This document shows, in pieces, positions 54,001-60,150 of a DNA stretch of 64,000 bases. This DNA is from Tubiluchus corallicola. Lineage: Eukaryota > Priapulida > Priapulimorpha > Priapulimorphida > Tubiluchidae. Under the pieces are notes generated by a model. That model did not search any database. It saw only the letters and a program-made list of their open reading frames with translations, and was not told the DNA's origin. The DNA is taken from contig JAQGDQ010000099.1 in NCBI GenBank assembly GCA_030141605.1, positions 513,194 through 577,193 of the forward strand, given 5' to 3'. Position 1 is the first letter of the stretch. Each line of letters opens with the position of its first letter. Made by a program: the position numbers and the translations under genes.

Positions 54001-57000
54001 TATGATGCATAAAATTCCAAAATTCACCATCTATACCTGGCAAATAATATCTTTGTTTGTGAAGCGCACTACCATGCGATACTTTGGCGTATTATACTTG
54101 TTCTTGTCCTGCACTACTAAGCGTTTACGGGCATAGTAGTCAGTTTTCCCTTCTATAAACAGAGACAGTAACATGAGTCTCATAAGAACTTTAGTAGAAT
54201 ACAATTTAACCAACTCAATAGGTAAAAACAGAATTTCAGCATAGTAATAAATCTTCAACGTACAACTTTTACATTGATCTGAATGTGACAGCTTTTTTCA
54301 GCTGAGAGTCCATTGATTATTAACTAATAAACTAATTATTGTAAAAACTGTATAAAGTAATTTGCAAAACAGCAACAATTGCATATATCATTTATATTTG
54401 CTTTGTTCTATTTCAGATATAAAAGTAACAGATTTGTGCGATGCAAGTTAAGTACATGCAGAAAAAATGAAGAAAGTGTAGGTACAATGGATTGCTGACA
54501 TTACCTCGTCTTCTCTTAAATTTCACTTGGTACCTCTTGAAGTACGCCTTGTTCTTCACAACTTTTACAAACCCCTGTAAGAAAGTATGTACACAATTAC
54601 ACAATCTATTGCTGAAACATGCAGTGTGTCGAAATGTTCTAGTCCCTGGCACACGAATAAGATCTAATGTTGTATGAGCAGGAAATAAGGATGGAAAAAA
54701 TGAATTTCGAAGTAAAACATGCTCAAAGTCTAACAAAACAAATACAAACTCAGAAAATACAAATCACTAAAAAAAGGAATTTTAACAGCAATGTTTATGA
54801 AGATTAAAACAGCAGGAACAAACAACAAGAAAGACAGGATCGAGACCAAGTTTTTTAGGAACTTGATAAAGATAACTGTACCCGTAATCCGCTTAGTTTT
54901 CATCTGCAGAGGATGTGTTCATTTAATTATGGGTCGGCCATTTTACTGGTTGGCAAAATAATTCAGCATGTGCCCAATGAGGAGCATTTAACGTAATAAT
55001 GCGCTCACTCCAGTTATTTTAATTTTTAATGTCTGCCAACACTTAACTGTATTTGTTAATTTTTGCATCTAAGCCTGTTGTTGTTGTTGCTGTTGCACCT
55101 TGTTGCATCTTAGATGCCTACTTGGCATCTAAGCCGTAACGGTACCTTTTTATGAAGTCAATATATATCACAGTTTTAGACATATCTACTCCCGTGACAC
55201 TTTTTTTTTCAAAATTAAACCAAAATTTATCGAGACAATATACAAAATCACACATTATCACTTCATTCTTATAGCTGTGTTGTGAGAGTATATCATATGG
55301 AGCCCATGCAAAGTGAATTTTTCATGGATGATGTTGATTGTATGTAATACAGAAACATTAATCTGGTAAGCCCAAAATGGAAAGGCCAACACCCACTCTA
55401 GGATACGACCTGTAAATTTACCTCAATAAATTTATAAAACTGAATGTACTAGTATATAATTATAAGTGATTTTATTTATTCTGTTGGAAAACTTTTCCGA
55501 CATATCAGTCGGTAGCAATACTAACAGTTATTGCAAAGACAATTATATGGTTTTTGATGATTCTAAACCAATTTAGTGATTTAATTTATCAAGATGCATT
55601 GGTAGCTGAGTTAATCTTGTTTCTGCCCAACATAGTCACCAGTTATTCCCCAATTAGTTAGTAAGTCAGCCTCCCAGTTTACGTTTATCAATGAGTCAAT
55701 TACCCAGTCACTCAATGACTTAGCCAATAAATCAGCCAGTTTAAGAATTTGAACAGTTACAGAGTTAGCTACACAAATGCTCAGAAAACCAATCAGCTAG
55801 TCAATCAGTCAATGAAAAAGTGATATAAATAAGTCAGAAAGCCAGGTAGTCAGTCAAGAAATGAGTCGGTGAGTTAAACAGAATAAGTAGTCTATTAATC
55901 AGTATATTATAGCTAGTTACATGCTTAGCAACTCGGAATGTCACGTATCGATAATAAAAACTTTGCACAGAATACAATGACTTAGAGCAGTAGTACCTAA
56001 ACATTATTTTTAGACAATGCAGTGTCAGTATGATCTCATACAATGTCTAGCATCTGTTTCTATTAACGTTAACTTTAAATGACTTTCATTTTGACAAAGA
56101 CAGTTAGTTTTTTTCTTGAAATTTTCAAGGCAAATTTGGCTAAATAAGATTAAAAGTGAAGAAAACTATGTAAGTTGTGAGTTAATCAGAGAAGATAAAT
56201 GACATAATACCATTCCGTTTCACTTATTCATTTATTGAACTAATCTGCTCTGCTAATGTTCCAAGCATTTTATACGCAACAACTGCTTGTAGTGCGCTAA
56301 TCAATTGAAACAGTAATTTTGATGTTTTTAGACATCAATGCAATTGCGGTACACTTCGCTTAATTAATTCACCTTGGTTTGAAGCTAAATGGATTTTCAT
56401 TAAGAGGCTAGATTTATAAACCAAAGAAACCTATTAAGTAGTATTAAAGTACATATTGTCCAAAAGTGGATTTTAGTAGTAACTGTCTGCCAAGTTAAGA
56501 TTCATCATTCATTTAGTTAAGGCATTAACAAGCTCGAGCACAACTGTTTACAGCAAGAATTAAAGTGTTAGTTTAATCTAATTAAGTATGCAAAACGAAT
56601 ATGCAAGACCGTAGAATGCACAAGACATGTCCAGTATTGTGTTTTAGTGAAATTTTTTGGAAGATGCATGTGAATATCTTGTTTGAGTTGGTAAAATGTA
56701 GCATTTTTGAATAGTCACTGTTCTTAAGTTTGCGGTGCAGTGTTTCCAATGCATGTCACATTTCAGCAGCGATATAGAAATTTCGTCATGACCGTTACCA
56801 CTGTGTCTCGTTAGGATTTTGAAAAAATACAAAGTTAGGATTAAATGAAAAAAATACAAAGTTGGAAAACATGTTTAAAACAAAGATGCTGTTCCAGCTC
56901 AAGTTAAAATGCTGAACAATCACGTGGTCTTGTCTCAATTTTGCAGTCTTCACAGTGCACAAGTTGGATTTATAAAGCAAAGTCTGGATTTAATAAACAA

Positions 57001-60000: not shown

Positions 60001-60150
60001 TGTGGGTACTTGGTGTGAGAATTTCTGGCAAAAATAATCTACTTAATATGGGTTACAGACGTAAAATCAGAAAAGATACTTAAAAAGTACAAGATCAAAA
60101 GATATTAGCTAATTAATTCGTATTGTTATTATTTAGAAAATACTTACCAT
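48055..60150 (-). CDS. RpL5: 60S ribosomal protein L5 (uL18)
   Basis: Large-subunit protein that binds 5S rRNA and, with RPL11, forms the 5S RNP. Exons 60150-60148 (ATG only), 54574-54505, 54152-54037, 52605-52471, 51476-51274, 50230-50053, 49184-49090, 48148-48055; all phases agree and the product is 297 residues, the same as human RPL5. Identity blocks are [97 protein letters not shown] and [11 protein letters not shown]. Exon 2 begins at the Gly after Met, so the ATG must come from an upstream exon. The only good ATG|GTAAGT found on this strand up to 60.3 kb is at 60150, preceded by a pyrimidine TOP-like tract. That leaves a 5,573-bp first intron containing the IPMK coding exon. Exons 2-8 are certain; exon 1 is inferred. 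Confidence 0.95.
48690..49085 (-). repeat. Dispersed repeat with hAT-like end, copy 2
   Basis: Matches 34690-35325 in blocks. Read inversely, the right end (AGAGGTGTAACAAGATGGGGG) meets the splice donor of RpL5 exon 7 (GTAAGT at 49089-49084), so the insertion sits directly against an essential splice site. Confidence 0.55.
49858..50040. repeat. Tandem ~42-bp repeat next to an RpL5 splice donor
   Basis: About five diverged units of the form GAAATTTCAAGCATG.CTAG then ATAAATTTACTACATAGCCATT. The last unit ends roughly ten bases from the donor of RpL5 exon 6 (50052-50047). Confidence 0.8.
52686..53410. mobile_element. Mariner/pogo-type MITE interrupted by a second element
   Basis: The left part (CACTAACTTCTTTATACGGC to about 52770) and the right part (53379-53410, GCGAGGTTGGCTTTATAAAG then AGGTTTGAACTC) match the two halves of the 174-bp element at 57282-57455, read inversely. 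The copy is split by the piggyBac-like element at 52909-53374; the segment 52775-52904 is unaccounted for. Intron 3 of RpL5. Confidence 0.65.
52909..53374. mobile_element. PiggyBac-like MITE
   Basis: 466 bp with inverted ends CCCTTTCACTACG / CGTAGTGAAAGGG. The right flank is TTAA (53375-53378) and the left flank TTGA (52905-52908), a one-base decay of the TTAA target typical of piggyBac. Inside its right part GGCGACAGTCTACCGCCTTC is repeated nearby as GGCGGCAGTCTGCCGCCTTC. Non-coding. Confidence 0.75.
53540..53766 (+). mobile_element. hAT-type MITE, family A copy 3
   Basis: 227 bp, internally shorter than the copy at 13564. The ends are CAGGGCCGGATCATGATC and ATAATCTGGCCCTG. It is flanked by CATATATG (53532-53539) and TATATATG (53767-53774), an 8-bp duplication with one change. 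Intron 3 of RpL5. Confidence 0.85.
55633..55876. repeat. Degenerate AGTCA-rich repeat tract
   Basis: Scattered short direct repeats such as CAATCAGTCAATGA, AGTCAATTACCCAGTCACTCA and GTAGTCAGTCAAGAAATGAG over about 240 bp, as in an old short-unit satellite. In the proposed first intron of RpL5. Confidence 0.5.
57282..57455. mobile_element. Mariner/pogo-type MITE (174 bp)
   Basis: TA on both sides (57280-57281 and 57456-57457). The ends CAGTCAAACCTTGTTATAAT and CAGTCAAACTTCTTTATACT (inverse of the right end) match over about 25 bp with differences. A related interrupted copy is at 52686-53410. Confidence 0.8.
58658..59596 (-). CDS. Ipmk: Inositol polyphosphate multikinase (IPK family)
   Basis: Phosphorylates inositol tri- and tetrakisphosphates (and PIP2 in animals). 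One long exon of 312 codons plus stop follows a strong acceptor (CTTTACTGTTACTGCAG ending at 59597). Motifs: PLSHQIAGH near residue 40, [10 protein letters not shown], the IPK signature PSVLDIKIG (P-x-x-x-D-x-K-x-G), [18 protein letters not shown], the SSVLIVYE block (SSLL-type catalytic motif) and MIDFAHVFP (IDF motif). All key motifs are present and the frame is intact. The exon has no suitable Met before PLSHQIAGH; an internal ATG at 59431 would remove that conserved block. In phase 0 the exon can take its Met from the ATG|GTAAGT exon at 60150, which also suits RpL5; a weaker ATG|GTGAAC lies near 59914. Start unresolved, identity secure. Confidence 0.92.
   Translation of the reverse strand, partial: SCHRTSEVQQGCHISNQSDETDSQEHSSFPLPIGLSPLSHQIAGHFHGKGKTGLGMLQTTDGWILKHLQPPPRGTREMNFYNEVFASECHDSVLLKLREFLPEHGGITHINYGSVEETYLRLRDVVHCFDKPSVLDIKIGAITNDPDADPEKIAYEVSKYPKAQQIGFRFLGMKVYNSVTSAYLSLDKSWGKSLKEIDVVPALQSYLSACPTVTYHDTVVKQILRRLDNINKWFLEQRKYHFYASSVLIVYESSPASTPCSDASDSLCVKVCMIDFAHVFPATSRDDNYLFGLQSLIRHFTSLLQHSSTGTV

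What the first reader, a model, noticed from the sequence alone, without database searches (positions are those of the whole stretch)
54575..60150. One ATG-only exon fits both RpL5 and IPMK: nested gene or shared first exon
RpL5 exon 2 starts at Gly2 and needs an upstream Met; with the ATG|GTAAGT at 60150 the protein is exactly 297 residues. The IPMK exon (59596-58658), inside that intron and on the same strand, also starts in phase 0 after a strong acceptor with no usable Met of its own. So either IPMK is nested with its own unseen start, or one ribosomal-type TOP promoter and Met exon is spliced alternatively to a ribosomal protein and to an inositol kinase. The latter would couple IPMK to growth-controlled TOP regulation.
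Basis: partly seen in the sequence, partly recalled or inferred. Interest (0 to 1): 0.75.

Follow-up and report, generated by a model that had tools for sequence, protein, structure and literature searches.

The report
Kinase gene inside ribosomal-protein intron
An inositol kinase gene without a start codon of its own sits in the first intron of a ribosomal protein gene whose tiny first exon carries just a start codon in the right frame, so the two may share one promoter and start, but only RNA data can prove it.

Summary
RpL5 (minus strand) is rebuilt from 8 exons as a 297-residue protein whose Met comes from an ATG-only exon (60150-60148|GTAAGT), 74 nt behind a polypyrimidine (TCT/TOP-type) initiator. 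Inside its 5,573-bp first intron, same strand, is an intact IPMK kinase exon (59596-58658), the one clear IPMK found in the genome assembly. It follows a strong acceptor, starts in phase 0, has an in-frame stop just upstream, and has no Met before the kinase core. Of 50 one-exon ways to give this exon an ATG from the 4.4 kb upstream, splicing from RpL5's exon scores best, though one distant path scores almost as high; the 7 that start inside the 551-bp gap are weaker. The exon looks like a terminal exon, and no clear promoter signal was seen in the gap. ATG-only first exons are normal in ribosomal protein genes, and a phase-0 fit is a one-in-three coincidence, so the DNA favours a shared exon but does not prove it. 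I put the shared exon at about 0.5 and a nested gene with its own weak first exon at about 0.3. The layout matches the cholinergic VAChT/ChAT locus, with a ribosomal host and a shared Met. No animal relatives or RNA data could be searched.

The parts
60148..60224 (-). Predicted first exon of RpL5: 74-nt 5'UTR starting CTTTTCC (TCT/TOP-type initiator, C+1 at 60224) plus ATG, donor GTAAGT; candidate shared exon
   Evidence: no upstream ATG in the leader; one match in the genome assembly; the transcription start itself is inferred from the motif
59597..60147 (-). Intron segment between the ATG exon and the IPMK acceptor (551 bp); would be the IPMK intron if the exon is shared
   Evidence: no donor above 2.4 bits inside; 7 of 50 ATG paths start here, the best having a 1.24-bit donor
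58658..59596 (-). IPMK exon: 312 codons plus TAA, phase 0, no own start before the kinase core
   Evidence: Pfam IPK PF03770 E=7.6e-46; IPMK structure 6m88 E=9.6e-63; one match to this protein in the genome assembly
58168..58173 (-). First AATAAA downstream of the IPMK stop (possible poly(A) signal)
   Evidence: no donor above 3 bits between 58657 and 58101, so the exon looks terminal
54505..54574 (-). RpL5 exon 2, begins GGG (Gly2)
54037..54152 (-). RpL5 exon 3
52471..52605 (-). RpL5 exon 4
51274..51476 (-). RpL5 exon 5
50053..50230 (-). RpL5 exon 6
49090..49184 (-). RpL5 exon 7
48055..48148 (-). RpL5 exon 8 with stop

Best explanation
IPMK is a same-strand nested gene that uses the first exon of RpL5. 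Transcription starts at the RpL5 polypyrimidine initiator. The 77-nt leader ending in ATG is spliced either to the distal acceptor at 54574, giving RpL5, or to the strong proximal acceptor at 59596. In the second case the transcript ends at a poly(A) site in intron 1 and encodes [12 protein letters not shown]...IPMK (313 residues). IPMK would then behave as an alternative terminal exon of the RpL5 transcription unit and carry a 5'TOP-type leader. Shown: the two intact coding regions, their nesting, the phase fit, the absence of an own Met before the kinase core. Inferred: the start site, the 60148-to-59596 junction, the poly(A) site, and any co-regulation.
For: Of 50 one-exon ATG-to-IPMK splice paths from 64000 to 59641, RpL5 exon 1 to 59596 scores highest (10.58). 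The 7 paths that start inside the 551-bp gap reach 5.42 at best. The IPMK exon cannot start itself at its N-terminus: there is a stop at 59635-59633 and no in-frame ATG until 59431, behind the stretch that aligns to the IPMK structure 6m88. Its acceptor is the highest of the eight scored and lies upstream of every RpL5 acceptor. No donor above 3 bits follows within 557 nt of the stop, and AATAAA lies at 58173, as expected of a terminal exon. Of 26 CpG windows from 57000 to 62199 the RpL5 start (60200-60399) is the highest (o/e 1.33), while 59600-59799, just before the IPMK exon, has no CpG. The frame is intact and is the one clear IPMK found in the assembly, so it is presumably expressed from here. 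A close precedent, confirmed by RT-PCR: the tick cholinergic locus, with an 82-bp shared exon and the VAChT ORF in ChAT intron 1 (PMC7524744, passages read).
Against: There is no RNA evidence. The phase fit alone has about a 1-in-3 chance. Start-codon introns are ordinary in ribosomal protein genes (PMC1626468, passages read), so RpL5 exon 1 says nothing special about IPMK. A second path from 62856 to acceptor 59585 scores nearly as high (10.46). A weak own start exon at 59917/59915 is not excluded, and 59800-59999 around it has 4 CpGs (o/e 0.71, window median 0.58). The 37 codons before the kinase core do not look coding by a small codon-usage test (-3.9 bits; another forward frame is also open), so the true acceptor could lie elsewhere. 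No animal relative was searchable; four scans of viral contigs and genome contigs found no relative.
Confidence: 0.5

Rival explanations
1. Ordinary nested gene: IPMK has its own promoter in the 551-bp gap and its own small first exon with a Met, for example ATG at 59917 or 59932 with donor 59915 (GTGAAC), spliced to 59596.
For: Nested genes with their own promoters are known, e.g. Mcts2 in H13 (PMC13309782, abstract and outline). The 59915 donor (1.24 bits) is about as strong as or stronger than 2 of the 7 RpL5 donors (0.68, 1.26). Four CpGs lie in 59800-59999 (o/e 0.71).
Against: About 0.8 such donors are expected by chance in 551 bp (191 ATGs with one per 128 kb of strand). No clear CpG peak like that at the RpL5 start is present. 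RNA from the close RpL5 promoter would still meet the strong IPMK acceptor first.
Confidence: 0.3
2. IPMK has a first exon further upstream (beyond 60224), or a non-coding first exon with translation from the internal ATG at 59431 or a near-cognate codon.
For: Paths from 62856 (10.46) and 62659 (9.47) score near the best. The ATG at 59431 opens a 257-residue frame.
Against: Starting at 59431 would remove the conserved SHQ.AGH..GK stretch that aligns to the IPMK structure. The upstream paths give peptides that look unconvincing by eye, lie beyond a divergent putative gene (60332-61233) and would have to skip RpL5 exon 1.
Confidence: 0.13
3. A trans-spliced leader supplies the cap and the AUG at the 59596 acceptor, as flatworm spliced leaders that end in AUG could (recalled, not from a call).
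For: A strong acceptor with no own Met would look the same. In a ctenophore, clusters of genes with apparent shared first exons appear to reflect leader trans-splicing (PMC8527503, passages read).
Against: RpL5 scores 511 bits to its best, vertebrate-type match and 466 to the fly protein 4v6w (species recalled from the entry codes), so it is not a fast-evolving protein such as I recall for flatworms. The RpL5 5' region has one match in the genome, so it is not itself a multi-copy leader. The organism remains unidentified and no search for a spliced leader was run.
Confidence: 0.05

Closest known systems
Cholinergic gene locus (VAChT nested in ChAT intron 1, shared exon 1), e.g. Ixodes, PMC7524744
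   Same: Nested gene whose whole ORF lies in one exon in intron 1 of the host; a short first exon usable by both (82 bp there, about 77 nt predicted here).
   Different: There the shared exon was confirmed by RT-PCR and the two proteins serve one pathway. Here the shared exon is only predicted, would supply the initiator Met, and joins a ribosomal protein to an inositol kinase.
Start-codon introns of ribosomal protein genes (PMC1626468)
   Same: ATG exactly at the 3' end of exon 1, followed by a phase-0 intron; this fully explains RpL5.
   Different: No second gene using such an exon is mentioned in the passages I read.
Nested gene with own promoter, H13/Mcts2 (PMC13309782)
   Same: Coding gene inside a host intron, linked to intronic polyadenylation of host transcripts (abstract).
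   Different: Mcts2 has an intragenic promoter of its own; no clear one was seen upstream of the IPMK exon.
Papilin/helicase nested pair of a cattle tick (PMC3160391)
   Same: Same-strand nesting with shared exonic sequence (passages read).
   Different: Overlap with host exons 2 and 3 rather than use of the host's first exon.

Membership tests
RpL5 (uL18) | Full-length similarity and 297-residue length starting MGFVK | tested here: met
   (best E 9.8e-153, residues 1-295)
Start-codon intron class | Phase-0 intron directly after ATG | tested here: met
   class described in PMC1626468
IPMK (IPK superfamily) | IPK profile over the cut-off, best solved relative an IPMK | tested here: met
   44% identity to the 6m88 core
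IPMK (IPK superfamily) | PxxxDxKxG and IDF motifs (motifs recalled) | tested here: met
   PSVLDIKIG and MIDFAHVFP in the translation
Shared-first-exon nested pair (cholinergic-locus type) | Nested gene on the same strand inside host intron 1, ORF in one exon | tested here: met
Shared-first-exon nested pair (cholinergic-locus type) | Both mRNAs carry the same first exon | not testable with these tools
   no transcript data; the splice path is only predicted
5'TOP / TCT promoter gene | YYCTTTYY initiator just upstream (consensus recalled) | tested here: met
   C+1 at 60224, 74 nt before the ATG
5'TOP / TCT promoter gene | Capped 5' end at C followed by pyrimidines, growth-dependent translation | not testable with these tools
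   needs CAGE and polysome data
Nested gene with its own promoter | Own first exon and promoter in the intron | tested here: inconclusive
   only a 1.24-bit donor and near-median CpG

The most novel reading that the evidence does not exclude
One TOP-type promoter and one Met-only exon serve two unrelated proteins by alternative splicing plus intronic polyadenylation: a ribosomal protein and the kinase that makes higher inositol phosphates. IPMK output would then be set by the splice choice at a ribosomal protein gene and by growth-controlled translation.
Probability: 0.5. Interest if true: 0.7.

Novelty: new variant of a known kind. Interest (0 to 1): 0.48.

Why it matters
If true, it shows how a start-codon exon, a common feature of ribosomal protein genes, can be captured by a second coding exon and place a signalling enzyme under ribosomal-protein promoter and TOP translation control. 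It would be a ribosomal counterpart of the cholinergic locus and is directly testable with ordinary RNA-seq of this species. If false, it is an ordinary nested gene.

Tried and rejected
Retrocopies as natural cDNAs: I searched the genome assembly for RpL5 and IPMK copies that might preserve the junctions. The 7 of 7 RpL5 matches are exons of this locus, and the IPMK protein gave 1 match.

Other IPK genes in the assembly: the family search gave 5 matches, 1 here and 2 each on two other contigs. C775 is an IP3K (one of its two exons searched; best match ITPK C). C1461's nearest solved relative is IPMK (E=2.5e-18), but it is only 23% identical to the window protein over the aligned part. Its ending (IDFAH...GYIFGLEN) reads like an IP6K as I recall that family, and no animal IP6K is among the listed solved relatives. 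So 'one clear IPMK' rests partly on recall.

Related species: IPMK alone and an IPMK alignment against viral contigs and genome contigs gave no relative. These are viral and prokaryote collections, so absence there says nothing about animals.

Organism: the Chitin_bind_4 cuticle family and the mollusc-type haemocyanin domain gave no match, and COX1 gave none. The first speaks against an arthropod, but neither of the first two rang in any control genome, and the organism stays unidentified.

An RpL5 Met exon nearer exon 2, which would have separated the genes, was sought and not found. snoRNAs in the introns: no Rfam match at gathering score in the window. Codon usage of the 37 codons before the kinase core (-3.9 bits in frame) does not support coding there; the training set was small. 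An earlier report of an RpL5/IPMK shared exon: a search on RpL5, IPMK and the full name held 260 papers, 15 listed, of which 3 have RpL5 with an IPMK term; their titles do not concern such a locus and I did not open those 3. Broader searches listed 15 of 42, 15 of 141 and 12 of 56 papers, none of whose titles names it.

Full report
What is there. On the minus strand the window holds RpL5 in eight exons that join to a 297-residue protein. Its best solved-structure match covers residues 1-295 at E=9.8e-153. The Met lies on an ATG-only exon at 60150-60148 followed by GTAAGT. A YYCTTTYY initiator (consensus recalled) puts the predicted start at 60224, leaving a 74-nt leader without any upstream ATG. 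Of three strong single-codon ATG|GT sites on both strands of the window, this is the only one with such an initiator within 150 nt, and nothing comparable was found nearer exon 2. Start-codon introns are a described class in which ribosomal proteins are over-represented (14 of 44 in the arthropod set; PMC1626468, passages read). RpL5 itself is therefore ordinary.

The nested gene. RpL5 intron 1 is 5,573 bp; the other six are 352-1,431 bp. In it, same strand, 551 bp behind the ATG exon, is an uninterrupted 312-codon IPMK reading frame (Pfam IPK E=7.6e-46; IPMK structure 6m88 E=9.6e-63). In the 343.5-Mb assembly the IPMK protein gives one match and RpL5 gives only its own seven exons. The IPK family gives five matches: this one and two exons on each of two other contigs. 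C775 is an IP3K by its nearest solved relatives. C1461 is nearest to IPMK among solved proteins (E=2.5e-18) but 23% identical to the window protein, and reads like an IP6K as I recall that family. The window gene is thus the one clear IPMK, with that reservation.

Why it needs an upstream exon. The frame is closed by TGA at 59635-59633, and the first in-frame ATG is codon 56 of the exon (59431), behind the SHQ.AGH..GK stretch that aligns to the IPMK structure. The acceptor before 59596 scores 4.18 against 2.51-3.62 for the seven RpL5 acceptors on a crude scale. No donor above 3 bits follows in 557 nt and AATAAA occurs at 58173, so the exon looks like the last one of its transcript.

Where the Met could come from. 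I enumerated every ATG exon from 64000 to 59641 that can be spliced in frame, with a donor of 0 bits or more, to any acceptor scoring above -1 before the kinase core: 50 paths. The RpL5 ATG exon to 59596 is first (10.58). Next are two paths beginning about 2.5-2.7 kb above the RpL5 ATG (10.46 and 9.47) with peptides that look unconvincing by eye. Seven of 50 begin inside the 551-bp gap; their best is 5.42, with a donor of 1.24 bits, a strength of which about 0.8 are expected there by chance. That donor is nevertheless about as strong as, or stronger than, two of RpL5's seven (0.68, 1.26). CpG o/e is highest of 26 windows at the RpL5 start (60200-60399, 1.33; 95th percentile of the whole window 1.24; the next highest is 1.08 at 60600-60799). 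It is zero in 59600-59799 and near the median (0.71; median 0.58) in 59800-59999. The donor matrix and acceptor scale are generic ones written from memory, not trained on this organism.

How strong this is. The phase-0 fit alone is about a one-in-three coincidence, and RpL5's exon would be there anyway. The case for sharing rests on three things: no good alternative Met exon in the gap, no clear promoter signal there, and a strong proximal acceptor directly downstream of what should be a highly active promoter. Even a small fraction of splicing to it would give an intact IPMK mRNA. Against: no transcripts, no relatives, a distant path that scores almost as high, and a codon-usage test that does not mark the 37 codons before the core as coding (-3.9 bits). 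I therefore hold the shared exon at about 0.5.

Compared with what is known. The architecture is that of the cholinergic locus, where in Ixodes an 82-bp exon 1 is shared and the VAChT ORF lies in one exon in ChAT intron 1, the shared exon being confirmed by RT-PCR (PMC7524744, passages read). It works like that system on paper; membership needs the shared exon in both mRNAs, which I could not test. The mTOR-binding N-terminus is called mammalian-specific, however (PMC3499638, passages read), so a feedback loop in this organism is speculation.

Noticed in passing
60332-60416 and 61070-61233, + strand: A putative two-exon gene of 82 residues (MNLDHLTEADVEFL...) runs head-to-head with RpL5, its ATG 108 bp from the predicted RpL5 start, suggesting a bidirectional promoter; only a sub-threshold Pfam match (PTHB1 platform domain, E=0.025).
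   Followed up: partly
60217/60216, - strand: A strong donor-like site CCG|GTGAGT (6.05 bits) lies 8 nt after the predicted RpL5 start, inside the leader; use of it from an upstream start would remove the Met exon.
   Followed up: no
59660 and 59653, - strand: Two donor-like sites (GTGAGT, GTAAGT; 1.9 and 2.37 bits) lie 57-64 nt before the IPMK exon, compatible with a very short intron, but no in-frame ATG path leads to them.
   Followed up: partly
about 63170-63800, + strand: Sequence that reads like the C-terminal end of a LINE reverse transcriptase (LGVRVDSKFTWDEHF...), judged by eye.
   Followed up: no
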